This document shows, piece after piece, positions 1 through 56,544 of a stretch of 56,544 bases of DNA (the stretch's first letter is position 1; every line of letters begins with the position of its first letter). Below the pieces are notes generated by a model, which worked only from the letters and a program-made list of their open reading frames with translations, was not told where the DNA came from and made no database searches. The stretch is taken from IMG/VR virus record IMGVR_UViG_3300027799_000001, positions 1-56,544 of that record, one strand, 5' to 3'. The position numbers and the translations under genes were made by a program. Source of the stretch: a virus.

Positions 1-91
1 TGCAGCAAGGCAAACCTTTGGCGTTTTTTGGCTTTCAGTTAAGTGCCAAATTGCGTTCCCATTTTGCTTAACAGCCTCAAGGCAAATCTTT
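1..91. repeat. Terminal direct repeat (left copy), circular-closure overlap
   Basis: Bases 1-91 are identical to bases 56454-56544. A gene on the minus strand continues in frame through the overlap, as expected if the window is a linearised circular assembly. The same 91 bases also occur inverted at 47742-47832 inside a paralogous gene, so a false join at a repeat cannot be excluded from the sequence alone. Confidence 0.9.
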
Positions 92-624
92 GAAGTTCTT
101 TGTTTTTCAGTTAAATGAACAACAGCACAACCATTTTGCTTCACTGCTGCTAAACAAATCTGAGGTGTTCTTTGAGCTTCAGATAAAAACTTAATAGCAT
201 AACCATTCTCACACATTGCAGCAATGCAAACCTGATGTGTCCTATGTTCATCATTTAACCAATGAACAGCATAACCATTTTTATTAACTACTGATAAACA
301 TAATTCATGTGTACGAAGTTTATCCGGAATGAATTCCATTCCATCCCCATAATTTTCTGCTGTTATTATAGCCAATTCTAATAACTTTGGTTTTATTTTC
401 TCCATAAATCCTTCAACATCATCACCTACATAAACTTTAGAATCTATTTCCAAACCTTTGTTTTTACTATACTCATACTTGTTACATCTGTCCTCCCGAA
501 GCTTGAAAAAAGCACAGATCTGAGTGTGACTGTCAGGATTCTTAAGTAATTTCTTTTTGCGATCTTCTGCATTGATGTAATAGAAATTACCTTCATACGA
601 AACAAAGCTAAAAAAAAGACACAT
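1..624 (-). CDS. SFVSY/DUF4116-like repeat protein, 5' part of a gene spanning the circular join
   Basis: ATG at 624-622 is preceded by AAAGGAGTAG. The frame is open to base 1 and, through the 91-base terminal overlap, continues from 56453 to a TAG at 56367-56369, giving about 236 residues. It begins MCLFFSFVSYEGNFYYINAEDRK and has the family N-terminal domain of about 100 residues. About five 24-residue repeats of the form RTxQICLAAVxQNGxAVxxLTExQ follow, then a short KKRVDLD tail. The last three repeats are nearly identical in DNA to those of the gene at 47353. Function is unknown; repeats of this form resemble the DUF4116 class. Cytoplasmic, with no signal peptide or membrane segment. It lies in the minus-strand accessory operon. 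Confidence 0.85.
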   Translation of the reverse strand, partial: MCLFFSFVSYEGNFYYINAEDRKKKLLKNPDSHTQICAFFKLREDRCNKYEYSKNKGLEIDSKVYVGDDVEGFMEKIKPKLLELAIITAENYGDGMEFIPDKLRTHELCLSVVNKNGYAVHWLNDEHRTHQVCIAAMCENGYAIKFLSEAQRTPQICLAAVKQNGCAVVHLTEKQRTSKICLEAVKQNGNAIWHLTESQKTPKVCLAA

Positions 625-20244: not shown

Positions 20245-20323
20245 GATTATAATATACTTTTTTTAAAAGAAAATGTATCATTTTTAATTAAAAAAAATTA
20301 TATTTATAGAAAAGGTGGTGATG
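20245..20323. promoter_or_regulatory. Divergent promoter region between the two main operons
   Basis: A 79-base A/T-tract spacer separates the leftward recombination/tail operon from the rightward replication/head operon. Leftward strand: CTTTTAAAAAAAGTATATTATA just before the ATG at 20244. Rightward: TTTTTAATTAAAAAAAATTATATTT then AAAGGTGGTG before ATG 20324. Both resemble the T-tract/A-tract/TATTATA promoter found at 22226 and 39287. Confidence 0.6.
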
Positions 20324-21418
20324 ATGGATAAAAATAATCAAAGTATTATTAACAACATTTTGTATGATATAGTATCAAGTGGTGAAAAAAATATAACAAT
20401 TAATGACTTGTCTCAAATAATTAATTTGAAAAATAACAAACAAATGGTATCAACTATAGCTGAAATTATTGAAAATGAAACCGCTAAAAATTCGAGTTTA
20501 GAAGTAATATCGCAAAAAATAAACGATGTCATTTCTAATACAAAATTTGCTGATAGCAATCAAAGCATACAGCACTGTTCATATGATGTTGCCGAAAATT
20601 TGACATTGGCATATAAAAGATCAATTGGAGAAGATATAAACAATGGGAAAATAATTACTGGCCTCAAAGGTTTGGATGATATCATAGATTCAATTGCATC
20701 GACAGATATGGTAGTAATAGCTGCAAGATCAGGACATGGTAAATCGAGTCTGGCATTGTCTATAGCTCTTAATGTCGTTAATGAAAATAATGGTGTGATT
20801 TTTATCACACTAGAAATGTCACGCAAACAATTGATAGATCGTGCCATAAGTGTAGACACGATGATACCGCACAGACAGATTAAAACAGGATTATTAAATC
20901 AAGAAGAAATAAATTGTGTAGCTAAAAGTATTGTAAAATTAAAATCGAAGCCTCTATATATCAGTGATGGTTGTTCTTTGACTATAAACAATATTAGAAA
21001 TCAAATAAAAAAAATTTCAAACAGAACAAAAATTTCATTAATAATTATAGACTATATACAATTGATTAAAACTGAAAAAGATAGAGAAAATAGGCAGGTT
21101 GAAGTATCAAACATTAGCCATGCAATCAAAAAAATGTCTAAAGAATTAGCCATACCTGTTATAGTTTTAGCCCAATTAAATCGAGCTGTAGATTATAGAA
21201 TAGATAAAAGACCAATAGTTGCTGATCTACGCGAATCGGGTGACATTGAAAATGATGCTGATATGATATTTTTTATATACAGAGAAGGAAAATACAATTT
21301 AGATAAACCTGAACTTAAAGATAAAACAGAAATTATAGTGGCTAAAAATAGAAGTGGTCAATGCGGTTCTACAGAAATAGGCTTCGACGAAAATACTACC
21401 AAATTTTTTAATCTTTAA
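20324..21418 (+). CDS. dnaB: Replicative DNA helicase, DnaB-like, 364 aa
   Basis: RecA-fold hexameric helicase. Walker A VIAARSGHGKSSLAL (about residue 133), LEMSRKQLIDR, Walker B SLIIIDYIQLI (about 243), and the VLAQLNRAVDYRIDKRP...LRESGDIENDADMIFFIYR block. The N-terminal 100 residues are shorter than the bacterial primase-interacting domain and not clearly homologous. AAAGGTGGTG precedes; ATG 20324 gives the best spacing (GTG 20315 and ATG 20321 also in frame). Unwinds DNA at the phage fork, with the primase at 39324. Confidence 0.95.
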   Translation: MDKNNQSIINNILYDIVSSGEKNITINDLSQIINLKNNKQMVSTIAEIIENETAKNSSLEVISQKINDVISNTKFADSNQSIQHCSYDVAENLTLAYKRSIGEDINNGKIITGLKGLDDIIDSIASTDMVVIAARSGHGKSSLALSIALNVVNENNGVIFITLEMSRKQLIDRAISVDTMIPHRQIKTGLLNQEEINCVAKSIVKLKSKPLYISDGCSLTINNIRNQIKKISNRTKISLIIIDYIQLIKTEKDRENRQVEVSNISHAIKKMSKELAIPVIVLAQLNRAVDYRIDKRPIVADLRESGDIENDADMIFFIYREGKYNLDKPELKDKTEIIVAKNRSGQCGSTEIGFDENTTKFFNL

Positions 21419-21469
21419 CAAAAACAAAAATAAAATTTAATATTTGAACACACGTTTAAAAACATGTTC

Positions 21470-21489
21470 TTATTTAAGCGCTTAAATAA
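21470..21489. repeat. 20-base perfect palindrome
   Basis: TTATTTAAGCGCTTAAATAA lies 51 bases after the helicase stop codon. As RNA it makes a tight hairpin that could end the helicase transcript; as DNA it could bind a dimeric regulator. A second stem, TAAGATA/TATCTTA with a three-base loop, follows at 21619-21635. Confidence 0.6.
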
Positions 21490-21749
21490 AATTATAGTTA
21501 AATTGGAAATGTTTTTTTATTCTTATTGTTTTTTTTGTTTTTTTTCTTTTTTATCTTCTATAAATATTTAACCTTTAAAAACTTAACGCATAATAATTTA
21601 ATCTAAAAACTAACTGTATAAGATAATCTATCTTATTGTACTGACTAGTAATTTTTTCTTTTCTATTAGCATGTTTTAGTATTGATTCTTATGCAATAGG
21701 ATAAAGAGTAGATTGTAAATGTAAGATATTTATACAAGATAATTTCAAC

Positions 21750-22190
21750 CCCGCACTTTGAAAGTGCTACAAAGCGCTAAGGAAGCCCCCCCCCTATCCC
21801 CCCCCATGAAAATTGACTACTGTCAATATCATGGTGTGGATAGCATGCCCCCCTCGGGTTAAGGTTCCCCGAGTACCACATGGAATCCCAACGTTTTATT
21901 GATCTATCAAATCGTGCATCCTACCGTTGTTTTATTGATCACGCACCACCAGTTTTGTGCGTATGTTGTGCTATGTATTCGCTTGGGTTGAGGTACTGCT
22001 TCCCCAATTTCTCCCAGCTTATGGATAATGCAATACAAACATAACACAACTTATTTGGATTGCATGTTGCATTGTGAGCTTTTGTAGCCTATATAATCAA
22101 TATTATCATGACTTTACGCTTTTACCACTTCATCCCTACTCATCCATATAGGACGGCGCGGGGTTCGCCTGCAACTGGCGCACTATATAT
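21750..22190. other. GC-rich, hairpin-rich noncoding locus (origin or structured RNA candidate)
   Basis: The whole gap 21419-22278 has no credible gene. Its first 330 bases are AT-rich; bases 21750-22190 are far richer in GC than the rest of the window. Visible elements: stem 21753-21767 (GCACT/AGTGC); C-runs of 9, 8 and 6 at 21786, 21798 and 21848; bipartite hairpin 21805-21833; hairpins 21853-21873 and 21941-21962; a related GGGTTGAGGT hairpin near 21984-22006; direct repeat GTTTTATTGATC at 21893 and 21929; GGCG/CGCC stem 22155-22169. Lies between helicase and RNase H genes, which suits a replication origin. A large phage ornate RNA (GOLLD/ROOL-like) is the alternative. Confidence 0.55.
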
Positions 22191-22225
22191 ATTATAGACA
22201 TTTTTTTATTTGATGTATCACTTTT

Positions 22226-22256
22226 TTGATTCTTTTTTTAAAAAAAATATTATATT
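22226..22256 (+). promoter_or_regulatory. Promoter TTGATT-16-TATTATATT
   Basis: TTGATT at 22226-22231, a 16-base T-tract/A-tract spacer, and TATTATATT at 22248-22256. The same arrangement, with the same spacing, is found at 39287-39317 before the primase operon, so it is probably the shared promoter of replication genes. Confidence 0.65.
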
Positions 22257-22278
22257 TAACATATACTTTGTCAATTGG

Positions 22279-22812
22279 ATGGATAGTATGAATAAAAAAA
22301 GATGTGTGTCTAATCCTAAAGGTGGTTTTAATAAAACATACAAATTGTCTGTTATTTATACTGATGGGTCGTGCCTTGGTAATGGCAAGTCTAATAATGT
22401 AGGAGGGTGGGCTTACATTATTAATAATAATGGTGTGAGGAATTGTAATAGTGGACGTGTTTTCAACACAACTAATCAGGTTATGGAGCTTACGGCTTGT
22501 TTAGAAGCGTTAAAGTCAGTTCCACCTGACACAACTAATGTAGATATTTATTCAGATAGCGCATACTTGATTAATTGCATGCTGTATAAGTGGTACGAAA
22601 AATGGATTCGCAAAAATTGGATAAATTCTACAGGTGGAAAAGTTGTTAATAGAGATTTGTGGGAACAGATATTACAATATAATAATATTTATATTGTTAG
22701 GTATAAAAAGGTTCACGCTCATTCTGGTGATTTGAATAACGAACGTGTAGATAAAATGGCTAGGGATGCAGCTAAAGGAACAAACTTAGAATACAAGGTG
22801 TGTATATTTTGA
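22279..22812 (+). CDS. rnhA: Ribonuclease HI, 177 aa
   Basis: Removes RNA from RNA-DNA hybrids during replication. Catalytic residues are visible: IYTDGSCLGN (first Asp, about 29), TTNQVMELTACLEAL (Glu, about 71), IYSDSAYLIN (second Asp, about 94), VHAHSGDLNNERVDKMARDA (His and last Asp, about 147-163). Also WYEKWIRKNWINSTGGKVVNRDLWEQI, the handle region. An upstream in-frame ATG at 22210 lies before the promoter-like element, so the ATG at 22279 is preferred. Confidence 0.93.
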   Translation: MDSMNKKRCVSNPKGGFNKTYKLSVIYTDGSCLGNGKSNNVGGWAYIINNNGVRNCNSGRVFNTTNQVMELTACLEALKSVPPDTTNVDIYSDSAYLINCMLYKWYEKWIRKNWINSTGGKVVNRDLWEQILQYNNIYIVRYKKVHAHSGDLNNERVDKMARDAAKGTNLEYKVCIF

Positions 22813-22824
22813 TGAGGAGAATAT

Positions 22825-23301
22825 ATGATAATAATATGTCCACATTGTGCTACTAAAATAAATGCACGAGACTTGAAATTAGAAACAACGCAAGAATCGG
22901 ATTCGCTTGGTTTGATTAATGAAATAGTTTCATACTGGAATAGTAAAAATATTTTGGGCAAAATACGAAAACCACATACTGCATTACAATTGTCTATAAT
23001 CAAATCTGTTGAAAGATACAACAAGGAGGATGTTAAAAGAAGTATAGATAATTACAATGAAATAATGATGCATCCTGAAACGTACTGGTATAGTTACAGA
23101 TGTAATATGTTAGGATTTTTTCAAATAAGAAAAACTAAAAATTCAATATACGAAGTTTTTTTAGACGAAAATAAGCCACTTGAAAATTTTTCGAGAAGCA
23201 ATACTAGGAGTTTTAGTAGGAAGCAGAGCCGTGGTTGTCTTAATTTACTCGGTGAAATATGTGTTGATTCTAAACCTATCAACAATGGAGGTGACCATTA
23301 A
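22825..23301 (+). CDS. Zinc-ribbon protein with replisome-organiser-like C-terminal domain, 158 aa
   Basis: N-terminal IIICPHCATKI gives one CxxC pair. The domain IVSYWNSKNILGKIRKP...SIIKSVERYNKEDVKRSIDNYNEIMMHPETYWYSYRCNMLGFFQ (about residues 36-100) follows the pattern seen at the C-terminus of phage replisome organisers and DnaD-like loaders (YWN, aI..Y..ediaIdNY, W.Y...L..F). Probably helps to load the helicase at the origin. It is followed by a 17-base overlap with the next gene. Confidence 0.68.
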   Translation: MIIICPHCATKINARDLKLETTQESDSLGLINEIVSYWNSKNILGKIRKPHTALQLSIIKSVERYNKEDVKRSIDNYNEIMMHPETYWYSYRCNMLGFFQIRKTKNSIYEVFLDENKPLENFSRSNTRSFSRKQSRGCLNLLGEICVDSKPINNGGDH

Positions 23302-23954: not shown

Positions 23955-24852
23955 GCGCATAGTAAATAATACAAAATTTAATGAAAAAAATTATTTGTAT
24001 TTTATTGGTGATACTCATTTGTCGAATATAAATTGCGATACAGATTTTTTGATCAAAACTATAAAGTATATAGCAAAACAATCTGAGTCAAAAAATGTTT
24101 TTGTTTTTTTAATGGGCGACTTATCTGATTTTATTTCTAATATTGATGATAAGAGGTTTGATTTTAATTCAGTTGGTACTCGTTATAAAATAAGGGATTT
24201 AAAAGATTTTATTCCGTTGCAGGTTGAGGAGATAGTTGATATTTTTAGTCCGATTAAAAAAAATATAGTATCTGCTATATGTGGTAATCATGAGGAAAAA
24301 ATAATACTCAAAACAAACAATAACATATATTGTGGAGCTAATGGTTATTGTACTAAATTAAAAATAACACCAATAGGCAATGTTGGTATGGTTCAAATAC
24401 AAAACTTAATTAATAACAGTCATACCAGAATGACCTATACTATTGCTATGAGTCACGGTTTTGGTGGTGGTTCACATTTGCCAGGTTCAGCGATTAATAA
24501 TTGTGTCAGATTTTATGAGACAATGTTTGGAAATATAGACCTGGGTGTAATGGGGCATATGCATAAATTGTGTCACACTAAACGTAATTATATAGAATTT
24601 ACTGAATCTAGATCTGCTGATAAAGAATTGGTTAATACTGTCCAAGTTCATTACGCAGTTTCAGGGACTTATTTGCAAAAAAGTTTAATAGGTACACACA
24701 ATTACTTCGAAGGAAAACCAGGTGGAAATACTGGAATAGGATGTCTTGAGGTTGCATATCAAATTCATCGCAAAACAATACATAGAAAAGAAACTTTGGT
24801 AAAAAATACAGTCATAAGGTATTTGGATTCGTTGGAGTCATTAAATGAATAA
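23944..24852 (+). CDS. Calcineurin-like metallophosphoesterase, 302 aa
   Basis: Two-metal phosphoesterase motifs in order: YFIGDTHL (about 21-28), FLMGDLSD (about 55-62), ICGNHEE (about 112-118), AMSHGFGGG (about 178), and VMGHMHK (about 205). Length of about 300 is normal for phage members. Starts with TTG (23944) inside the end of the 56-aa gene, with a GAGG-rich site just upstream. Substrate could be DNA ends, RNA or nucleotides. Confidence 0.9.
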   Translation: MEGKRIVNNTKFNEKNYLYFIGDTHLSNINCDTDFLIKTIKYIAKQSESKNVFVFLMGDLSDFISNIDDKRFDFNSVGTRYKIRDLKDFIPLQVEEIVDIFSPIKKNIVSAICGNHEEKIILKTNNNIYCGANGYCTKLKITPIGNVGMVQIQNLINNSHTRMTYTIAMSHGFGGGSHLPGSAINNCVRFYETMFGNIDLGVMGHMHKLCHTKRNYIEFTESRSADKELVNTVQVHYAVSGTYLQKSLIGTHNYFEGKPGGNTGIGCLEVAYQIHRKTIHRKETLVKNTVIRYLDSLESLNE

Positions 24853-25498
24853 AAAAAGTAAAAATATTAAAAAAGATAGCATCGATAAATCATTTAAATC
24901 CTTGTCAGCGTTTTGTTGTACAAAAGATAGTTTGGTTTTAAAAAACATTAAATTCGCTACGTATATGGCGAGCAGGAATTATAGATCATCATCAATACCA
25001 TTGGAAGATGCTATAATGGTTGCAATATACGGTATGCTTAAAGCTGAAAAAAAATTTGATGAAAAGTGTGGTGTAAAATTTACAACATTTTCTGCTAATT
25101 ATATTCTAGTTGAATTGAAGGATTATTATTACAGAAATAAACATGTTGTTTGTTTACGCCGCAGTGATATAGAAACAGAAAAAAAATTAACAAGTTCAAC
25201 CTTGAATGATGATGTTAGTTTGGATTTTGAGAATATTGGACATTTTAATATGGTTGAGTGTGATAATAGTAATTATGGCGCTTGTATCGATCAGAATTTC
25301 TTTAAGCTAATTGAAATATGTGAGTATGTTGAAGGATTATCTGATCTTAGTAATGAAGAAAAAGATATTTTAAAAAATATAAAATATGAAGGGCTTGGTA
25401 AAAACAAACTTAAAACAAAATTAATAAAAGATTTATTGGAAAAAGTTAAATCAAAAATAACAAATAAATTTAATATATTAGGTTTGAGTGATATATAA
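24845..25498 (+). CDS. Sigma-70-family RNA polymerase sigma factor, 217 aa
   Basis: Region 2 is recognisable (about residues 25-105): LVLKNIKFATYMASRN, LEDAIMVAIYGMLKAEKKFDEKCGVKFTTFSANYILVELKDYYYRNKHVVCLRR, the core-binding and -10-recognition helices including the FTTFxxxYI segment. The C-terminal LSNEEKDILKNIKYEGLGKNKL part could be a region 4-like helix-turn-helix. It probably redirects host polymerase to phage late promoters, and lies directly before terS and the head genes. ATGA overlap with the previous gene. Confidence 0.82.
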   Translation: MNKKSKNIKKDSIDKSFKSLSAFCCTKDSLVLKNIKFATYMASRNYRSSSIPLEDAIMVAIYGMLKAEKKFDEKCGVKFTTFSANYILVELKDYYYRNKHVVCLRRSDIETEKKLTSSTLNDDVSLDFENIGHFNMVECDNSNYGACIDQNFFKLIEICEYVEGLSDLSNEEKDILKNIKYEGLGKNKLKTKLIKDLLEKVKSKITNKFNILGLSDI

Positions 25499-38132: not shown

Positions 38133-38146
38133 TGTACCCATCCTTG

Positions 38147-38344
38147 TTATATTGATTTCACGTTTCTAAAAAAATTTGCATGTTTTTGCAATGTTTTGTT
38201 ATTGATAAATATATCATTTCCAATTATTTTTATTTCACTTTTATGAATGATTATGTACTCAGTTGTTGTCCACACCTTCTTTTTTAGTTCGATATAACAT
38301 CCTGTTTTTTGATTGATAGTGAAGATTTTTGTTAATTTTGTCAT
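38147..38344 (-). CDS. Hypothetical protein, 65 aa
   Basis: Strong AAGGAGGACGAA site before ATG 38344. Short beta-rich basic protein (KIFTINQKTGCYIELKKKVWTTTEYIIIHKSEIKIIG). First gene after the TTGACT-17-TATAAT promoter at 38368-38396. Unknown. Confidence 0.58.
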   Translation of the reverse strand: MTKLTKIFTINQKTGCYIELKKKVWTTTEYIIIHKSEIKIIGNDIFINNKTLQKHANFFRNVKSI

Positions 38345-38367
38345 TTCGTCCTCCTTGTTATATATAA

Positions 38368-38396
38368 ATTATACAACTTTTTCAGGGAAGAGTCAA
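38368..38396 (-). promoter_or_regulatory. Sigma-70-type promoter
   Basis: Minus strand: TTGACT (38396-38391), 17-base spacer, TATAAT (38373-38368). Directs the 38344-35579 operon. Confidence 0.78.
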
Positions 38397-38409
38397 TACT
38401 TTTGATTAA

Positions 38410-38541
38410 TTATTTTTCTATTTGTTCCAATACCTTGTTAAATCCATTGTTATAGTTGTTGACTGTATTTTGAAAACTTTTGAACGTAAAAAAACCTATT
38501 ATCATTGTGATTGTTATTATTGTGATTATTATTGTTTTCAT
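38410..38541 (-). CDS. Small Ile-rich membrane protein, 43 aa
   Basis: MKTIIITIITITMIIGFFTFKSFQ... then NNYNNGFNKVLEQIEK, ATG 38541 to TAA 38410, preceded by AAAAGGGGTAAAAA. N-terminal membrane segment of about 16 residues and a short charged tail. Own promoter at 38591-38619. The ACAATAATAATCACAATAATAACAATC coding is repetitive (Thr/Ile codons). Confidence 0.58.
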   Translation of the reverse strand: MKTIIITIITITMIIGFFTFKSFQNTVNNYNNGFNKVLEQIEK

Positions 38542-38590
38542 TTTTTACCCCTTTTTTGTATTTGTTGTGTCTCATTACTACTGTATAATA

Positions 38591-38619
38591 AGTATACCAC
38601 TGATTCATGATATTGTCAA
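38591..38619 (-). promoter_or_regulatory. Sigma-70-type promoter
   Basis: TTGACA (38619-38614), 17-base spacer, TATACT (38596-38591) on the minus strand, ahead of the 43-aa gene. Confidence 0.78.
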
Positions 38620-38647
38620 TAATATTTTATATGTTTTTTAATCTTAA

Positions 38648-38690
38648 AATACAAAACCCATAAAAATAAACGGTTTATGGGTTTTGTATT
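38648..38690. terminator. Bidirectional terminator, 17-bp perfect stem
   Basis: AATACAAAACCCATAAA (38648-38664) pairs completely with TTTATGGGTTTTGTATT (38674-38690), nine-base loop. A/T-flanked in both directions. Insulates the 38908/38706 cassette from the operon below. Confidence 0.85.
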
Positions 38691-38705
38691 AATATCAGTG
38701 TTTTT

Positions 38706-38891
38706 TTAATTTTTAATCTCAGCAAATATAGCACCATAATAATCATGATCTACAACTTTGTAACATTTTATGTTATTTGAATATTTCTTGTAAGCCATTG
38801 TAAATTTTTCACCATTTTGGCCGATTTTGTCTTCGATATGATCAATAATTATAACTTTGCCGCTTGTTAGTCTAATTTTTTGGATTTTCAT
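38706..38891 (-). CDS. Hypothetical protein, 61 aa (intact QKIRLTSGKV gene)
   Basis: ATG 38891 after GCAAAGGTGGTCAAA (a GTG nine bases upstream lies within the site). MKIQKIRLTSGKVIIIDHIEDKIGQNGEKFTMAYKKYSNNIKCYKVVDHDYYGAIFAEIKN, a small alpha/beta protein with repeated Tyr/Lys. A decayed copy is at 2055-2147, also next to an LKTF-family gene, so the two genes travel as a cassette. Function unknown. Confidence 0.65.
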   Translation of the reverse strand: MKIQKIRLTSGKVIIIDHIEDKIGQNGEKFTMAYKKYSNNIKCYKVVDHDYYGAIFAEIKN

Positions 38892-38907
38892 TTTGACCAC
38901 CTTTGCT

Positions 38908-40445: not shown

Positions 40446-40710
40446 TTTAATTTATCATTCGACAGATGGGCGTTTTTCAGAAGCCGCATTATTAGAATGC
40501 AAAAATGGTGTATCATTTCTTAGCGATAAAAAACAAATGGATTTGATTTATAACCATGAAACTAAAAAATATACTATAGTTGCAAGTCATTCATTATGCA
40601 ATATATTTGAGAGACGTATTAATTTTGAAGGTCTTGGACAATATGATCTTTTTTGTATTTACAATTTAATAGGTTATTTTATAAGGCAAAATGGTGGTGA
40701 GGTTTTATAA
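40438..40710 (+). CDS. Hypothetical protein, 90 aa
   Basis: ATG 40438 overlaps the primase stop and follows AATGGAGGTATCA. Small soluble protein (MDNLIYHSTDGRFSEAALLECKNGVSFLSDKKQMDLIYNHETKKYTIVASHSLCNIF). It lies two bases from terL. No motif recognised. Confidence 0.6.
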   Translation: MDNLIYHSTDGRFSEAALLECKNGVSFLSDKKQMDLIYNHETKKYTIVASHSLCNIFERRINFEGLGQYDLFCIYNLIGYFIRQNGGEVL

Positions 40711-40712
40711 TA

Positions 40713-42392
40713 ATGGATAGCCAATTAATTGATAATCTTGTTAATGGTTATCATAGAGCCAAATACATAAATTTTATCAAGTATTGTTGGTTGTATACTA
40801 ATCGACCATTTTTGATAGGGTACCACACAAAAATAATATCGGATGAGATCGATTTGGCGCTTAAGAGATACAAAGACGGTCAATCATCTTATTTGATGTT
40901 TTTGTGTTGTTTTAGGTCGGGGAAAACCGAGTTGACATCTCGGTTTTTGCCTGTCAGATTTTTGGCTCAAAATCCAGATGATGAGGTTTTAATAGTATCT
41001 CACAGACAAGATAAAGCTAATCAATTTAGTCGGTATAGCCAAATGATTGCATCTTCTAAAAATTTTAAAAAATTGTATCCAGATTTAGCCATTGGAAAAG
41101 CTTCTGTGCAGGAATGGGGTTTTGATAATCATTTGGGGTCTTGCCAGTATATAGGTATAGATACTGGATCGGCAGGTATGGGGGCTAATCTATTAATACT
41201 TGATGACTATTATGGTGGTATAGAAGATGCGCTATCACAAACTATAGAAGAAAAAAGATGGAACGCATTTAGTTCAAATTTGCTGACCAGGCTTGGCAGT
41301 CCGCATATAGTAGCGATATGTGTTACACCCTGGACTACGTCTGATATAGTTGCACGAATACAACAAGAAATGATTAAAACCAAAGACTATCCGCAATATA
41401 AAATTTTACGATTTCCCGGAATAGATGAGTCATATCCGTCAGGTTATCTTTTCCCTGAAAAATACCCTGAGTCATGGTATATTGCTCAAAAAGCTACCCT
41501 TAGTAAATATGAGTTTCACTCTTTGATGCAGGCACAACCATTACCACGTGACGCGGGTGTATTCAAAACTTCTAAAATTAAATACTATGATGATATAAGT
41601 GATGTTATTGATGACCCAGAGTCAATTATATGGATTAGGGCATGGGATATAGCTGCATCAGTTAAAGAATTAATTAAGAGTGATCCAGACTGGACTGTCG
41701 GCGTCAAAATGTTTGTCAAAAAATATGAAAGCAATGTTGATGGTTACTATGTACACACGGTGTATATAGATGATATAATAAGGGTTCGTTTTGAGGCACC
41801 TGAGCGCGATAGGCTTATACTGAGTACGGCTTTGGCAGAAAGTAATACCATAGTAGGGGTAGAGTCATTTGGGGTTCAGAAGGACGTCTACAGCAACGTA
41901 CGCAAGCTTCTACAGGGCAAACGTATAATACGCAAGTTCCCTGATGGAAAAGATCCTCGTGGAGATTTGTTATCAAGATCGTTTGCTTTACAAACTGCGT
42001 GTGAAAGCGGTAACCTTTATGTCAAACGTGCCGATTGGAACGAGGCTCTAATCAATGAGTTGGCGTGTTTTCCAGGCTCAAAACATGATGATATTATAGC
42101 TGCAATGGTCGTAGGATTTTACGTTGGACAACGTAGCGGAACCGGTGTAGGTGTGATGGTTGACACACACAGTATTGAGGTAGAGCGTGAAAATAAATGG
42201 GGCGTGATATTAGGGCAGATAATCGATGGATATGAGCCTACGATAAGTCAGACGGATTATATACGCTTTGTAAGGTATAGGCTTGTTGAGCATGCTGGTA
42301 AGGAGGAGAATAGTGCGGTGGTAGAGTTGATGAATTCTATCATCAAAAAGTTAGATATAGAATACGATTATGAATCGTTTAAAGTGGTGTAA
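40713..42392 (+). CDS. terL: Terminase large subunit, 559 aa
   Basis: Motor ATPase: Walker A-like LCCFRSGKTELTSRF (K71), VLIVSHRQDKANQFSRY, Walker B ANLLILDDYYGGIE (D164-D165), VTPW motif III. C-terminal nuclease: IIWIRAWDIAAS (first Asp about 310), GVESFGVQ (Glu, about 390) and KHDDIIAAMVVGFYVG (last Asp pair about 465). Cuts and pumps DNA into the head. Codon usage looks the same as in neighbouring genes. The small subunit is at 25501, so the two are not in the same operon. Confidence 0.93.
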   Translation: MDSQLIDNLVNGYHRAKYINFIKYCWLYTNRPFLIGYHTKIISDEIDLALKRYKDGQSSYLMFLCCFRSGKTELTSRFLPVRFLAQNPDDEVLIVSHRQDKANQFSRYSQMIASSKNFKKLYPDLAIGKASVQEWGFDNHLGSCQYIGIDTGSAGMGANLLILDDYYGGIEDALSQTIEEKRWNAFSSNLLTRLGSPHIVAICVTPWTTSDIVARIQQEMIKTKDYPQYKILRFPGIDESYPSGYLFPEKYPESWYIAQKATLSKYEFHSLMQAQPLPRDAGVFKTSKIKYYDDISDVIDDPESIIWIRAWDIAASVKELIKSDPDWTVGVKMFVKKYESNVDGYYVHTVYIDDIIRVRFEAPERDRLILSTALAESNTIVGVESFGVQKDVYSNVRKLLQGKRIIRKFPDGKDPRGDLLSRSFALQTACESGNLYVKRADWNEALINELACFPGSKHDDIIAAMVVGFYVGQRSGTGVGVMVDTHSIEVERENKWGVILGQIIDGYEPTISQTDYIRFVRYRLVEHAGKEENSAVVELMNSIIKKLDIEYDYESFKVV

Positions 42393-44665: not shown

Positions 44666-44694
44666 TTTAATAAACACAATTGAGGGAGGCTGAT

Positions 44695-44841
44695 ATGGTT
44701 GTTAATCAAAAGTTAATGTATCATGTCATCAATTTGCGCAACAAAATAACACAAGCAATATCTAACCATAATTATACTTCAGCTAAGGCATTGACACACA
44801 AGTTAGTTACATATTGCAAGAAAAATAAAATCAAAATTTAG
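44695..44841 (+). CDS. Small basic helical protein, 48 aa
   Basis: ATG 44695 to TAG 44841 with a strong GAGGGAGGCTGAT site. MVVNQKLMYHVINLRNKITQAISNHNYTSAKALTHKLVTYCKKNKIKI: two amphipathic helices, very basic. Unknown. Confidence 0.62.
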   Translation: MVVNQKLMYHVINLRNKITQAISNHNYTSAKALTHKLVTYCKKNKIKI

Positions 44842-44870
44842 TTAACAATTTCGTTGAAATTGTGTATATT
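44842..44870 (+). promoter_or_regulatory. Variant sigma-70-type promoter
   Basis: TTAACA (44842-44847), 17-base spacer, TATATT (44865-44870), then TAGATAGTA. Overlaps the stop codon of the 44695 gene and drives a 240-base leader before 45112. Confidence 0.68.
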
Positions 44871-44890
44871 TAGATAGTACATTGAAAATG

Positions 44891-45070
44891 GTGTACGTTA
44901 CACATCAACCTGTTACACTAACAATATAACAACATGATAACAAATATTCGAACAGTTGTTATTTGACCGAGACGTTAAAAAGTATAGAAGTGTAGCGTCC
45001 ACCACTAATTTATGTTATTGTATTAACAAATCGACCCTCTTAGGCCCCCGTCAAACTCTTTTTGGCGGGG
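44891..45070 (+). promoter_or_regulatory. Structured 5' leader of the 45112 gene
   Basis: Noncoding. Hairpin GTGTA/TACAC (44891-44903) at the start. Near the end a CCCCGTC/GGCGGGG stem (45046-45052 with 45064-45070), then no strong T-run. Could be a translational regulator or attenuator. Confidence 0.45.
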
Positions 45071-45093
45071 TTGTGGCAAGTAGTTAAAAGATT

Positions 45094-45329
45094 AAACAAA
45101 GGAGTAGAAAAATGAGAGCAATAGTATTAGATGTATCTGTAGGTACGGAAGAGCATGCAGGTGGTATTATGTGTAGTTTCGATGAGGACTGCGCAAGATA
45201 CATAGGGCAGACTATAGAAGTCCAGCATATGTTTACTGATTGTTTACGATGGTATACCTTGAAAGGAAAATCTACAATTAAGCCTGAAGTAATTTTCCAT
45301 AAAAATTGGTTAGAATTTGTACAATAAAA
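45094..45329. repeat. 236-bp perfect inverted duplication (plus copy)
   Basis: Bases 45094-45329 are identical to the reverse complement of 56145-56380, from inside the ribosome-binding site to just past the stop codon of a 71-aa gene. The sequences outside and the next genes are only paralogous, so identity is confined to this block. Confidence 0.9.
45112..45327 (+). CDS. Hypothetical protein, 71 aa, identical twin of 56147-56362
   Basis: MRAIVLDVSVGTEEHAGGIMCSFDEDCARYIGQTIEVQHMFTDCLRWYTLKGKSTIKPEVIFHKNWLEFVQ. Small alpha/beta or barrel protein with repeated Trp/Cys; the final IFHKNWLEFV resembles the WLDxV blocks of its neighbours. Start after AAAGGAGTAGAAAA. No base, even synonymous, differs from the minus-strand copy. 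Unknown function. Confidence 0.75.
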   Translation: MRAIVLDVSVGTEEHAGGIMCSFDEDCARYIGQTIEVQHMFTDCLRWYTLKGKSTIKPEVIFHKNWLEFVQ

Positions 45330-45383
45330 GTATGTTTATAGTGTATGAGGTGGTCAATAGATTTGTAACAAAGGAGTAGAAAA

Positions 45384-46166: not shown

Positions 46167-46231
46167 AATTTTTTATACTTTTTTGCACATTTTGTATTAT
46201 ATTTGTAAATAACTTTTAATAAGGAGTAAAT

Positions 46232-46408
46232 ATGATACTTAAAATCATAGTGTATAGTATGTGTGTAGCCTTATTTACAGGTTTGCATATTGCAGCAATA
46301 GTTAAATTTAAACGCTGGTTTAGCTGGCAAAAATATTTACAAATTATAGGCTTAGGTCTTATAGTATTTGCAGTGTCACTATTCACTCTATGTGCTATTC
46401 TTGGATAA
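46232..46408 (+). CDS. Two-TM microprotein, 58 aa
   Basis: MILKIIVYSMCVALFTGLHIAAIVKFKRWFSWQKYLQIIGLGLIVFAVSLFTLCAILG. Two hydrophobic segments flanking a basic RWFSWQK loop. AAGGAGTAAAT before the ATG. First of three similar two-TM microproteins in tandem (46232, 46418, 46592). Confidence 0.7.
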   Translation: MILKIIVYSMCVALFTGLHIAAIVKFKRWFSWQKYLQIIGLGLIVFAVSLFTLCAILG

Positions 46409-46417
46409 GGAGTAATT

Positions 46418-46585
46418 ATGGAACTTAAATTCCTTATATCTGTTTTGTGTTTGGCCCTAACTGTGTTTCATACTGTTATTATGTATAACAAACCACTTCA
46501 GATAAATAAACACGTACAAGATTTAAGATGGAGTCTTACTATCTTTTTGCTTTCATTATTAGTATACATTAACGTATCCCAATAA
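46418..46585 (+). CDS. Two-TM microprotein, 55 aa
   Basis: MELKFLISVLCLALTVFHTVIMYNKPLQINKHVQDLRWSLTIFLLSLLVYINVSQ. Same topology as its neighbour. AAGGAGTAATT site starting in the stop of the 46232 gene. Confidence 0.68.
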   Translation: MELKFLISVLCLALTVFHTVIMYNKPLQINKHVQDLRWSLTIFLLSLLVYINVSQ

Positions 46586-46591
46586 AATGAG

Positions 46592-46777
46592 TTGTTATGG
46601 AACTCAAAAACATATTTCTTAATATGTGGCATTTTATCTCTTTTAAATCTTGTATTATGCATTGATATACTTTTTGATTTTGATTTTAAAAATTGGAAAG
46701 ATTATTTGCAAAGGATAAGTTTATACTTTGTTATATCAATATTGTTTATAGTCCTACAACATACCAATTTTCAATAA
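46592..46777 (+). CDS. Two-TM microprotein, 61 aa, TTG start or frameshifted
   Basis: Frame from TTG 46592 gives LWNSKTYFLICGILSLLNLVLCIDILFDFD... ISLYFVISILFIVLQHTNF. The ATG at 46597 encodes MELKNIF in the wrong frame; one A fewer in the A5 run gives MELKTYFLICGIL, aligned with the MELKFL start of the previous gene. So either a TTG start is used, the A-run slips, or the gene is broken. Confidence 0.5.
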   Translation: MLWNSKTYFLICGILSLLNLVLCIDILFDFDFKNWKDYLQRISLYFVISILFIVLQHTNFQ

Positions 46778-47352: not shown

Positions 47353-47877
47353 ATGTGCCTTTTTTTTAGCTTTGTATCTTATGACGGCAATTTTTACTAT
47401 ATCAATGCAGAAGATAGAAAAAAGAAGTTACTTAAGAATCCTGACAGTCACACTCAGATATGTACTTTTTTCAAACTTCGGGAGGACATGTGTAATAAAT
47501 ACGAGTATACGAAAGAGAAAGGTTTGGTAATAGATTCCGAAGTTTATGTAGGTGATGATGTTGAAGGATTTATAAAGAAAACACTTCCAAAATTAGTAAA
47601 AATAGCTATTGTGACAGTGGTGAATTACGGTAAAGGCATTACCTTTGTTCCAGAAGAAGCACGTACATCAAAGTTTTGTTTAGCTGCAGTGAACCAAAAT
47701 GGTTCTGCTGTTGTTCATTTAACTGAAAAACAAAGAACTTCAAAGATTTGCCTTGAGGCTGTTAAGCAAAATGGGAACGCAATTTGGCACTTAACTGAAA
47801 GCCAAAAAACGCCAAAGGTTTGCCTTGCTGCAGTACTACAGAATAAAGATGCTTATAATTATCTGACTGATTCTTAG
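47353..47877 (+). CDS. SFVSY/DUF4116-like repeat protein, truncated by an amber codon, 174 aa
   Basis: N-domain MCLFFSFVSYDGNFYYINAEDRKKKLLKNPDSHTQICTFF, three repeats, then LTDS followed by TAG at 47875-47877. The frame downstream of TAG continues AAA AAA AGA GTA GAT TTA GCA TTA ... to a second TAG, coding the usual KKRVDLALENKK tail, so the stop replaces the CAG found in the junction gene. Probably loses only the 13-residue tail. DNA from 47707 to 47832 is nearly identical to bases 126-1. Confidence 0.85.
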   Translation: MCLFFSFVSYDGNFYYINAEDRKKKLLKNPDSHTQICTFFKLREDMCNKYEYTKEKGLVIDSEVYVGDDVEGFIKKTLPKLVKIAIVTVVNYGKGITFVPEEARTSKFCLAAVNQNGSAVVHLTEKQRTSKICLEAVKQNGNAIWHLTESQKTPKVCLAAVLQNKDAYNYLTDS

Positions 47878-47930
47878 AAAAAAAGAGTAGATTTAGCATT
47901 AGAAAATAAAAAACAGTAGAAAGGTAGAAT

Positions 47931-48737
47931 ATGTGCTGCTTTTTCGGTTTTGTCTCGTATGACAATGTTTTCTATTACATCAACGCAGAAGATAGGAAAA
48001 AGAAGTTACTTAAAAATCCTGACAGTCATACTCAGATCTGTTCCTTTTTCAATCTGCCTGAAGACAGATGCAATAAATACGAGTTTTCTGCAGATTTTGG
48101 CATTACAGCAGATGCCTTAGAATATAAAGATGACGACCCTGAAGGATTTATAAAAAAAATGTTGCCAAAATTAGTAGAAATGGCTATTGCGACAATTAAA
48201 ACTTATGGAGAAGGCATTGAGTTTTTATCAGACGAGGAACGCACTCAAGAAATATGTTTGGCTTTGGTTAAAAAGAATTGTGATGCAATAAGACACTTAA
48301 CTGATAAGCAGCGCACACCTGAGGTTTGTATCGCTGCAGTTAAGAAAGACGGCAACGCCATTGTCTATCTAACGAATAAACAGCGAACGCCAATGGTTTG
48401 CCTGGCCGCTGTTCAAAAAAATGGTGATGCTATTAGGTTCCTAACTGCTAAACAACGCACACCAAAAGTATGTAAGGAAGCAGTGAAGAAAGCTGGTTGG
48501 ACTATTACTTATTTAACAAATGAACAAAAGACTCTAGGACTTTGTATGTTATCTGTGGAAAAGAGTGGTACTAATATCGAGTATGTTCCTAATGAGCTAA
48601 GGACACCAAAGCTTTGCTTGACGGCAGTGTTAAAAGACAAGGCGGCTTTTAAATTTCTCAATTATATTCAAAAAGAAGAAGTGGCTATGGCTCTGCTAAA
48701 GCGAGTAAAAGCATGCAAAAAATCCGGAACAAAGTAA
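47931..48737 (+). CDS. SFVSY/DUF4116-like repeat protein, 6 repeats, 268 aa
   Basis: N-domain MCCFFGFVSYDNVFYYINAEDRKKKLLKNPDSHTQICSFFNLPEDRCNKYEF. Repeats from about residue 100: RTQEICLALVKKNCDAIRHLTDKQ, RTPEVCIAAVKKDGNAIVYLTNKQ, RTPMVCLAAVQKNGDAIRFLTAKQ, and three more. C-terminus basic (ALLKRVKACKKSGTK) and unlike the usual VDLALESKN tail. AAAGGTAGAATATG site. Confidence 0.88.
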   Translation: MCCFFGFVSYDNVFYYINAEDRKKKLLKNPDSHTQICSFFNLPEDRCNKYEFSADFGITADALEYKDDDPEGFIKKMLPKLVEMAIATIKTYGEGIEFLSDEERTQEICLALVKKNCDAIRHLTDKQRTPEVCIAAVKKDGNAIVYLTNKQRTPMVCLAAVQKNGDAIRFLTAKQRTPKVCKEAVKKAGWTITYLTNEQKTLGLCMLSVEKSGTNIEYVPNELRTPKLCLTAVLKDKAAFKFLNYIQKEEVAMALLKRVKACKKSGTK

Positions 48738-51229: not shown

Positions 51230-52093
51230 ATGTGTAACTTTTTTAGCTTTGTTTCGTATGACGGTCATTTCTATTACATCAACGCTGAAGACCGCAAAAA
51301 AGAAATACTTGAGAATCCTGACAGTCACACTCAGATATGTTCATTCTTCAATCTGCCTGAAGATAGGTGTAATAAGTACGAGTATACGAAAGAGAAAGGT
51401 TTGGTAATAGATTCCAAAGTTTATGTAGGTGATGATGTTGAAGGATTTATGGACAAAATATATTCAAAATTAGTAGAATTGGCTATAATAACAGCAGAAA
51501 ATTATGGGGATGGAATGGAATTCATTCCGGATAAACTTCGTACATCAGAGCTTTGTTTGGCAGTGGTTAAGAAAAATGGAAATGCGATCAAATATTTATC
51601 TTTAGAGCAGAGAACTCCAAATGTTTGTTTAGCGGCGGTGAAGCAGGATGGTTATGCTGTTTGTTGGCTAACAGAGGATCAAAGAACGCCTCAAGTTTGT
51701 TTGGCAGCAGTAATGCAAAATGGTAGTGCTATTGGGTATTTAACTTTCAAACAAAAAACTCCTGAAATTTGTTTGGCTGCTGTTAAGCAAAATGGTGGCG
51801 CTATCATGGTTTTATCTGAGGAGCATGCCACACCAGAAGTTTGTAGGGCTGCTATTAACAACAATCCTTATTCCGTGGCAAGCATACCCGACAAATTGCG
51901 TACTCAAGATCTTTGTTTGATGGCTGTTAAAAAAGATGGGACTGTTGTTAAATATTTATTGGATGAAGAGAGAACGCTGGATATTTGTTTAGCGGCAGTG
52001 AGGCAAAATAAAAATACTCGTAAATATTTGACTGAAGATCAGAAAAAAGCAGTAGATTTAGCATTAGAAAATAAAAATAAAACAAAAGGATAG
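51230..52093 (+). CDS. SFVSY/DUF4116-like repeat protein, 7 repeats, 287 aa
   Basis: N-domain MCNFFSFVSYDGHFYYINAEDRKKEILENPDSHTQICSFFNLPEDRCNKYEYTKEKGLVIDSKVYVGDDVEGFMDKI, then LRTSELCLAVVKKNGNAIKYLSLEQ and six further 24-residue repeats to LTEDQKKAVDLALENKNK. The fifth repeat, ATPEVCRAAINNNPYSVASIPDKL, is a variant also present in the 54475 protein. AAAGGAGTAAAAAATG start. A truncated copy of the N-domain follows directly (52099). Confidence 0.9.
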   Translation: MCNFFSFVSYDGHFYYINAEDRKKEILENPDSHTQICSFFNLPEDRCNKYEYTKEKGLVIDSKVYVGDDVEGFMDKIYSKLVELAIITAENYGDGMEFIPDKLRTSELCLAVVKKNGNAIKYLSLEQRTPNVCLAAVKQDGYAVCWLTEDQRTPQVCLAAVMQNGSAIGYLTFKQKTPEICLAAVKQNGGAIMVLSEEHATPEVCRAAINNNPYSVASIPDKLRTQDLCLMAVKKDGTVVKYLLDEERTLDICLAAVRQNKNTRKYLTEDQKKAVDLALENKNKTKG

Positions 52094-54474: not shown

Positions 54475-55326
54475 TTAATTTTTACTTTCCAATGCTAAAT
54501 CTACTGCTTTTTTCTGATCTTGAGTCAAAAAATTATAAGCATTTTTATTCTGCAGTACCGCGGCCAAGCAAATCTGAGGTTCTCTTTGCTCATCAGTTAA
54601 ATAATAAATAGCAGTACCATTTTGCTTAACCGCAGCAAAACATATCTCCGGAGTTTTTTGCCTATAAGATAAATGTCTAACTGCTCTACCGTTTTGCATT
54701 ACTGCTGCTAAACAAATATCTGGAGTTTTATCTTTATCAAGTAAAAAATTAATAACATCTCCATGTTTTTTAACAGCCATCAAACAAAGATCTTGAGTAC
54801 GCAATTTGTCATGCATATAGGCTACAGAACAAGGGTTATTGTTAATAGCAGCAATACAAACTTCCAGTGTTTGCTGTTTTTCAGATAAATATTCTATAGC
54901 CTTACCATTTTGGTTCACTGCTGCCAAGCAAATCTGAGATGTCTTATGTTCATCATTTAACCAACGAACAGCATGTCCTTTTTTACTAACTACTGATAAA
55001 CATAATTCATGTGTACGAAGTTTATCTGGAATGAATTCAATTCCATTCCCATAATTTTCTGCTGTTATTATAGCCAATTCTACTAATTTTAAATATATTT
55101 TGTCCATAAATCCTTCAACATCATCACCTACATAAACTTTAGAATCTATTACCAAACCTTTCTCTTTCGTATACTCATACTTATTACATCTATCTTCAGG
55201 AAGCTTGAAAAAAGCACAAATTTGAGTGTGACTATCTGGATCCTCAAGTATTTTGTTTTTTCTATCTTCGGCATTGATGTAATAGAATGTATTATCATAA
55301 GATACAAAGCTAAAAAAATGACACAT
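54475..55326 (-). CDS. SFVSY/DUF4116-like repeat protein, 7 repeats, 283 aa
   Basis: N-domain MCHFFSFVSYDNTFYYINAEDRKNKILEDPDSHTQICAFFKLPEDRCNKYEYTKEKGLVIDSKVYVGDDVEGFMDKI. Seven repeats, starting LRTHELCLSVVSKKGHAVRWLNDEH and including the AINNNPCSVAYMHDKL variant, ending LTQDQKKAVDLALESKN. Closely parallel to the 51230 protein of the other arm and to the junction gene. AAAGGAATAGAAAAAATG start. Confidence 0.9.
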   Translation of the reverse strand: MCHFFSFVSYDNTFYYINAEDRKNKILEDPDSHTQICAFFKLPEDRCNKYEYTKEKGLVIDSKVYVGDDVEGFMDKIYLKLVELAIITAENYGNGIEFIPDKLRTHELCLSVVSKKGHAVRWLNDEHKTSQICLAAVNQNGKAIEYLSEKQQTLEVCIAAINNNPCSVAYMHDKLRTQDLCLMAVKKHGDVINFLLDKDKTPDICLAAVMQNGRAVRHLSYRQKTPEICFAAVKQNGTAIYYLTDEQREPQICLAAVLQNKNAYNFLTQDQKKAVDLALESKN

Positions 55327-55344
55327 TTTTTCTATTCCTTTTGT

Positions 55345-55836
55345 TTAATTTTTACTTTCCAATACCAAATCTACTGCTTTTTTCTGATCTTGAGTCAAAT
55401 GATAATAAGAATTTTTGTTTTGCATTACAGCCTTTAAACATACCTCAGGTGACCGCTGTTCGTCAGTAAAATACTTTATAGCATATCCATATTTTTCGAC
55501 TATCGCCAAGCAAATTTCAGGTGTGAGTTGAAAACCTTTTAAAAACTCATTTCCTTTACCATAATTCATAATTGTCACTATGCATAGTTCTTCAAATTTC
55601 GGCATTAATTTTTCAATGAAGCCTTCTGGATCATCGCCTTTATACTCAAAAGCATCAGTCATAATTCCATCATATTTATAATACTCATATTTATTACATC
55701 GGTCTTCAGGCAGATTGAAGAATGAACAGATCTGAGTGTGACTGTCAGGATTTTTAAGTAACTTCTTTTTGCGATCTTCGGCATTGATATAGTAAAAATG
55801 GCCGTCATACGAAACAAAGCTAAAAAAATGGCACAT
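55345..55836 (-). CDS. SFVSY/DUF4116-like repeat protein, 2 repeats, 163 aa
   Basis: N-domain MCHFFSFVSYDGHFYYINAEDRKKKLLKNPDSHTQICSFFNLPEDRCNKYEYYKYDGIMTDAFEYKGDDPEGFIEKLMPKFEELCIVTIMNYGKGNEFL. Then QLTPEICLAIVEKYGYAIKYFTDEQ and one final repeat, ending LTQDQKKAVDLVLESKN. It is the shortest complete member, a useful reference for the N-domain plus minimal solenoid. AAAGGAGTAAAAC site. Confidence 0.88.
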   Translation of the reverse strand: MCHFFSFVSYDGHFYYINAEDRKKKLLKNPDSHTQICSFFNLPEDRCNKYEYYKYDGIMTDAFEYKGDDPEGFIEKLMPKFEELCIVTIMNYGKGNEFLKGFQLTPEICLAIVEKYGYAIKYFTDEQRSPEVCLKAVMQNKNSYYHLTQDQKKAVDLVLESKN

Positions 55837-56380: not shown

Positions 56381-56544
56381 TGCTTATATCTAAATCTACT
56401 CTTTTTTTCTGAGAATAAGTCAGATAATTATAAGCATCTTTATTCTGTAGTACTGCAGCAAGGCAAACCTTTGGCGTTTTTTGGCTTTCAGTTAAGTGCC
56501 AAATTGCGTTCCCATTTTGCTTAACAGCCTCAAGGCAAATCTTT
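56367..56544 (-). CDS. 3' end of the junction-spanning SFVSY/DUF4116-like gene
   Basis: Continues in frame from base 1 (equivalent to 56454) with repeats SKICLEAVKQNGNAIWHL and TPKVCLAAVLQNKDAYNYLTYSQ, then KKRVDLDISKTKE and TAG. Unlike the 47353 gene the CAG codon after LTYS is intact. Confidence 0.85.
   Translation of the reverse strand, partial: KICLEAVKQNGNAIWHLTESQKTPKVCLAAVLQNKDAYNYLTYSQKKRVDLDISKTKE
56454..56544. repeat. Terminal direct repeat (right copy)
   Basis: Identical to bases 1-91; see the left copy. Confidence 0.9.

What the first reader, a model, noticed from the sequence alone, without database searches (positions are those of the whole stretch)
21750..22190. GC-rich structured noncoding locus after the helicase gene
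In an AT-rich, tightly packed genome this is an approximately 800-bp gap with an approximately 440-bp GC-rich core carrying many hairpins and repeats. It has no open frame of quality. It is either the replication origin or a large structured RNA. Both would be functional and neither is recognisable by a simple motif.
Basis: partly seen in the sequence, partly recalled or inferred. Interest (0 to 1): 0.7.

Follow-up and report, generated by a model that had tools for sequence, protein, structure and literature searches.

The report
Unknown folded-RNA gene in a phage
Between a phage's DNA-unwinding helicase gene and its RNase H gene lies a 440-base non-coding stretch that looks like a gene for a large folded RNA read from the opposite strand, possibly one that helps start DNA copying; it matches no known RNA family, but no relative was found to prove it.

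Summary
A gap of about 790-870 bp (21419-22209/22287) separates a DnaB-like helicase from RNase HI. Its core (about 21747-22184) is 45.6% GC, the most GC-rich 434-bp stretch of the contig (mean 31%). It has no coding frame, Rfam match or tRNA.

It is best read on the minus strand. There it folds at -144.9 kcal/mol, with 0 of 400 shuffles as low (z -4.1; plus strand z -2.0). The fold is closed by a 10-bp helix plus a broken 15-bp helix joining its two ends. A TATAAT box (22196-22191) would start a transcript at the first base of the core. Near the 3' side lies G8-ATA-G9, the only G-runs of 7 or more in the contig, followed by 330 bp of 19% GC DNA.

I read it as an antisense large structured RNA gene inside the replication module. 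The most likely role, inferred and not shown, is an origin transcript forming an R-loop trimmed by the neighbouring RNase H. A free-standing ornate RNA is about as likely.

Covariation is untested: no relative close enough to share the locus was found. Strong fold scores also occur elsewhere in this contig. It is a credible orphan candidate, not a proven RNA.

The parts
22249..22274 (-). promoter-like site TTGACA-N14-TATAAT (also readable as TTGACA-N16-TAATAT), pointing into the core
   Evidence: consensus match only; 2 such sites in the contig against 0.54 expected
22191..22196 (-). TATAAT -10 box placed 6-7 nt before the first base of the GC-rich core; predicted RNA start about 22184/22183
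   Evidence: no good -35 box at 16-18 nt
21747..22184 (-). predicted structured RNA, about 438 nt
22166..22180 (-). 5' hairpin CGCC/GGCG
   Evidence: mean pair probability 0.99
22156..22165 (-). P1 5' strand AACCCCGCGC, pairs with 21747-21756
   Evidence: probability 0.98
21747..21756 (-). P1 3' strand GTGCGGGGTT
22116..22131 (-). P3 5' strand GAAGTGGTAAAAGCGT, pairs with 21761-21777
   Evidence: probability 0.78-0.97
21761..21777 (-). P3 3' strand
22057..22067 (-). inner long-range helix ACATGcAATCC, pairs with 21878-21888 GGATTcCATGT
   Evidence: probability 0.92
21965..22050 (-). 12-bp hairpin arm GTTGTGTTATGT/ACATAGCACAAC with internal stems; holds a G-U pair that is a mismatch on the plus strand
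   Evidence: probability 0.98
21893..21904 (-). direct repeat GATCAATAAAAC, copy 2
21929..21940 (-). direct repeat GATCAATAAAAC, copy 1
21786..21805 (-). G8-ATA-G9 tract (+ strand C9-TAT-C8), the only runs of 7 or more G in the contig; G-quadruplex-capable
   Evidence: MFE -156.0 with quadruplex term
21419..21745 (.). AT-rich spacer (19% GC) 3' of the RNA, with a perfect 20-bp palindrome at 21470-21489; candidate unwinding or termination region
20315..21418 (+). DnaB-like replicative helicase, short N-terminal part; convergent neighbour
22288..22812 (+). RNase HI; divergent neighbour

Best explanation
The core is an RNA gene of about 440 nt on the minus strand, divergent from RNase HI and convergent with the helicase. 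Its transcript starts near 22184, folds into a multi-branched structure whose ends are joined by a long helix, and runs through a G8AUAG9 tract into AT-rich DNA. Most likely mechanism (inferred): an origin transcript. The G-rich nascent RNA would re-anneal to the C-rich template strand or form an RNA-DNA quadruplex and leave an R-loop over the AT-rich spacer; RNase H would trim it to a primer for host DNA polymerase; the phage helicase would load on the displaced strand. Shown by sequence: composition, predicted fold, strand preference, G-tract, neighbours. Inferred: transcription, R-loop, priming. Confidence is about 0.5 that it is a minus-strand structured RNA and about 0.25 that it works as an R-loop primer.
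For: GC 45.6% in a 31% GC contig, highest of 516 windows. Minus-strand fold z -4.1, 0/400 shuffles, against z -1.95 on plus. 25 pairs join the two ends, reached by 8 of 200 shuffles. Key helices have pair probability above 0.9. TATAAT sits at the correct distance from the core's first base, with a second promoter-like site upstream. The only long G-runs of the contig lie at the 3' side, followed by 327 bp at 19% GC. RNase HI and DnaB-like helicase flank the locus, with CHC2/Toprim primase and SSB elsewhere in the contig; no DNA polymerase among the proteins scanned. R-loop-primed replication is established for ColE1, phage T4 and mtDNA (PMC5333043). In mtDNA a G-tract anchors the R-loop and RNase H1 processes it to primers (PMC6317783).
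Against: No homologue, so no covariation. Two window-strands of the same contig have stronger fold z-scores: 40591 plus at -5.7 and 22100 minus at -4.2; the antisense of the RNase H coding region scores -4.6. The strand difference is little more than one sd of the background in the 24-shuffle run. No convincing minus-strand terminator before the helicase gene. The promoter match is weak statistically. Cumulative GC skew follows gene direction. The R-loop step rests on analogy.
Confidence: 0.45

Rival explanations
1. A free-standing large structured RNA in the style of ROOL or GOLLD: an abundant trans-acting RNA or RNP that happens to lie in the replication module, from a class not yet described.
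For: Size, end-to-end closing helix and multi-branched fold; raised GC in an AT-rich genome; apparent own promoter. Large phage RNAs without known function exist (PMC12286853).
Against: No Rfam match; no tRNA island nearby; long G-runs are unusual for such RNAs (own judgement); no homologue found.
Confidence: 0.3
2. A cis-acting DNA replication origin whose hairpins act as DNA (protein-bound or single-strand initiation sites), with no functional RNA.
For: Lies between helicase and RNase HI; AT-rich block with a 20-bp palindrome beside a GC-rich hairpin block; folds as DNA with z -2.9.
Against: DnaA-box-like matches in the core are at the expected density; no iteron array; a DNA role does not explain the strand asymmetry of the fold.
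Confidence: 0.15
3. A plus-strand structured leader or untranslated region of the helicase/RNase H operon.
For: Both neighbours are on the plus strand.
Against: The plus strand folds only weakly better than shuffles (z -2.0); the structure ends about 100 bp before the RNase H start codon.
Confidence: 0.07
4. Acquired or decayed non-coding DNA (for example a host fragment or dead gene) with a higher GC content and no function.
For: GC shift; no conservation shown; other gaps exist in this contig.
Against: No protein remnant open under any single stop recoding; no match in phage or plasmid records; folding energy beyond composition.
Confidence: 0.15

Closest known systems
ROOL and GOLLD (large ornate phage RNAs, Rfam)
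   Same: Large, multi-branched, phage-encoded, non-coding
ColE1 RNA II origin
   Same: Structured transcript of similar scale leading toward AT-rich DNA; RNase H and replicative helicase relevant (analogy, partly from own knowledge)
   Different: No sequence match in plasmids; no RNA I-like antisense identified; no evidence of priming
Mitochondrial CSBII / LSP primer R-loop
   Same: Promoter, then a long G-tract of similar form (here G8-ATA-G9), RNase H as processing enzyme (PMC6317783)
   Different: Unrelated sequence; preceded here by a 400-nt structured RNA; R-loop not shown
Phage T4 R-loop origins
   Same: Transcript-primed phage replication (PMC5333043)
   Different: No homology tested or expected; T4 encodes its own polymerase (own knowledge), none was found here

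Membership tests
ROOL / GOLLD / OLE and all other Rfam families | covariance-model score above the gathering threshold | tested here: not met
   no hit; best chance hit CRISPR-DR24, 15.7 bits against 35 needed
Large phage structured ncRNA (as a kind) | long non-coding region folding beyond composition | tested here: met
Large phage structured ncRNA (as a kind) | compensatory base changes across relatives | tested here: inconclusive
   no homologue found
Large phage structured ncRNA (as a kind) | expressed transcript | not testable with these tools
   needs RNA-seq
tRNA / tmRNA | ARAGORN model | tested here: not met
DnaA-type origin | cluster of DnaA boxes above chance | tested here: not met
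   two 1-mismatch sites within the core, about the expected number
Iteron origin | array of direct repeats | tested here: not met
   one two-copy 12-nt repeat
R-loop primed origin (ColE1 / mtDNA-like) | promoter upstream of a G-rich transcript leading into AT-rich DNA | tested here: met
   (sequence features only; the promoter match is weak)
R-loop primed origin (ColE1 / mtDNA-like) | RNA-DNA hybrid and RNA-to-DNA transition at the site | not testable with these tools
   needs experiment

The most novel reading that the evidence does not exclude
A phage replication origin primed by a large structured RNA whose G8AUAG9 tract anchors an R-loop processed by a phage-encoded RNase HI: a bacterial-virus parallel to the mitochondrial CSBII primer, with a previously undescribed RNA class.
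Probability: 0.15. Interest if true: 0.75.

Novelty: new member of a known kind. Interest (0 to 1): 0.45.

Why it matters
Few large phage RNAs are described and most lack a function. One embedded between helicase and RNase H would give such an RNA a testable role in starting DNA replication. The locus is compact enough to clone and test whole.

Tried and rejected
(1) Rfam at gathering and permissive thresholds: nothing. (2) Known small RNAs: ARAGORN none. (3) Hidden or recoded protein: no frame. (4) Homologues by single-protein scans of viral contigs with helicase, portal and terminase: none. By helicase and terminase alignments: best identities 41% and 29%, and none of the window's neighbouring genes beside the helicase hits. 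By DUF4116 proteins: four phages without this helicase, RNase H or RNA. (5) DNA similarity to phage and plasmid records: AT-rich chance only. (6) Motif scan with the repeated ATCAATAAAAC and a 16-mer: hits share only the motif used to find them. Two phages (L193, L206) carry AATAAAACGTTAGG arrays and aligned weakly by nhmmer (E 0.04), but they were selected by the motif, so I do not count this as homology. (7) DnaA boxes and iterons: chance. (8) GC skew as origin evidence: confounded with gene direction.

Full report
What is there. The window is the whole of one viral contig of 56,544 bp, with a 91-bp identical repeat at both ends. Genes left of 20.2 kb run leftward and genes right of it run rightward. 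The locus lies in the rightward part, between a DnaB-like helicase (20315-21418, phrog_19, E 1e-68) and RNase HI (22288-22812, PF00075, E 1e-32). The gap is 791-869 bp. Its left 327 bp are 19% GC and include a perfect palindrome (21470-21489) and long T-tracts. Its right part, about 21747-22184, is 45.6% GC, the highest of 516 windows of that size in the contig.

Is it coding? No. The longest stop-free stretch is 67 codons, and recoding one stop does not open a convincing frame.

Is it structured, and on which strand? Folded as RNA, the minus strand reaches -144.9 kcal/mol; 400 dinucleotide shuffles average -121.4 (z -4.1, none as low). The plus strand has z -1.95 (16 of 400 as low). The minus-strand fold has a 10-bp helix joining the two ends (AACCCCGCGC / GTGCGGGGTT, probability 0.98), continued by a broken 15-bp helix. 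Inside are a second long-range helix ACATGcAATCC/GGATTcCATGT (0.92), a 12-bp arm (0.98) and several hairpins. In the 12-bp arm one pair is G-U on the minus strand and would be A-C on the plus strand. In a whole-contig control with 24 shuffles per window the minus strand has z -3.5 and ranks third of 251 window-strands. The antisense of RNase H itself scores -4.6 in another run. So fold energy alone is suggestive and not decisive; the combination with GC content, absence of genes and end-to-end closure carries the case. The end-to-end closure has an empirical p of about 0.04 (8 of 200 shuffles).

Transcription signals. On the minus strand, TATAAT at 22196-22191 would start RNA at about 22184, the first base of the core. 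Further upstream is TTGACA-N14-TATAAT / TTGACA-N16-TAATAT (22274-22247). The second type of site occurs twice in the contig against 0.54 expected, which is weak. No convincing intrinsic terminator follows on the minus strand. The RNA gene would be convergent with the helicase and divergent from RNase H.

The G-tract. The minus strand carries G8-ATA-G9 at 21786-21805 and G6 at 21848-21853; there are no other runs of seven or more G in the contig (0.34 matches expected). When quadruplexes are allowed, the tract folds as one and the long-range closing helices remain. Downstream in the minus direction is the 19% GC spacer.

Search for relatives. None was found that could test conservation. Helicase, portal and terminase gave no close relative in 2.9 million viral contigs. 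No helicase hit has the window's neighbouring genes. DNA searches of phages and plasmids found nothing. Motif scans found only motif-selected coincidences.

What it most likely does. The contig has helicase, a CHC2/Toprim primase, SSB, a Sak4-like annealing protein, an exonuclease, a Holliday-junction resolvase-like protein and RNase HI; no DNA polymerase was recognised among the proteins scanned (not every small ORF was scanned). A structured transcript that ends in a G-tract next to AT-rich DNA, beside RNase H and helicase genes, is what an R-loop-primed origin would look like. R-loops prime ColE1, T4 and mitochondrial replication (PMC5333043). In mitochondria a G-tract (CSBII) anchors the R-loop and RNase H1 makes the primer ends (PMC6317783). 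This is an analogy; every step from transcription onward is inferred. The nearly equal alternative is a free-standing ornate RNA like ROOL or GOLLD, which also have no known function (PMC12286853).

Verdict. The origin half is possible and untested. It is not a member of any Rfam family. Interest is moderate because the claim rests on one sequence.

Noticed in passing
window 40591-41041 (+): Strongest fold z-score of the contig (-5.7), spanning a small ORF before terminase and the start of terminase; may be a structured mRNA region.
   Followed up: partly
window 1-624, 47353-48737, 51230-52093, 54475-55836: Repeated genes at the contig ends with the shared start MC.FFSFVSYD..FYYINAEDRKK; the copy at 51230-52093 holds seven DUF4116 stretches. 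Many stretches are about 75-98% identical in DNA and lie in both orientations, suggesting duplication and inversion.
   Followed up: partly
window 1-91 and 56454-56544: Identical 91-bp ends, so the genome may be complete and circular; but the repeat family also has copies inside, so this could be an assembly artefact.
   Followed up: partly
window 38142-38907, 44666-45383, 46167-46692: Three further gaps of 526-766 bp without ORFs of 75 codons or more, AT-rich and without notable structure on most strands.
   Followed up: partly
window 22825-23301: 158-aa protein after RNase H with CPHC-type zinc-ribbon start and a C-terminal part that reminds me of phage replisome-organiser or helicase-loader proteins; no match in Pfam, PHROGs, NCBIfam or phage records.
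   Followed up: partly
L193 350-1010 (minus) and L206 1815-2045: Other phages carry non-coding arrays of AATAAAACGTTAGG, in L193 beside tRNA-like genes, resembling a repeated promoter or processing signal.
   Followed up: no
window 22100-22800 (minus): The antisense strand of the RNase H gene also folds better than shuffles (z -4.2 to -4.6); the minus-strand transcript may start further upstream, or the score reflects composition.
   Followed up: no
window 24845-25498: Sigma-factor-like protein (phrog_351, region 2 weak in Pfam), so phage promoters may not follow the sigma-70 consensus used in the scans.
   Followed up: no
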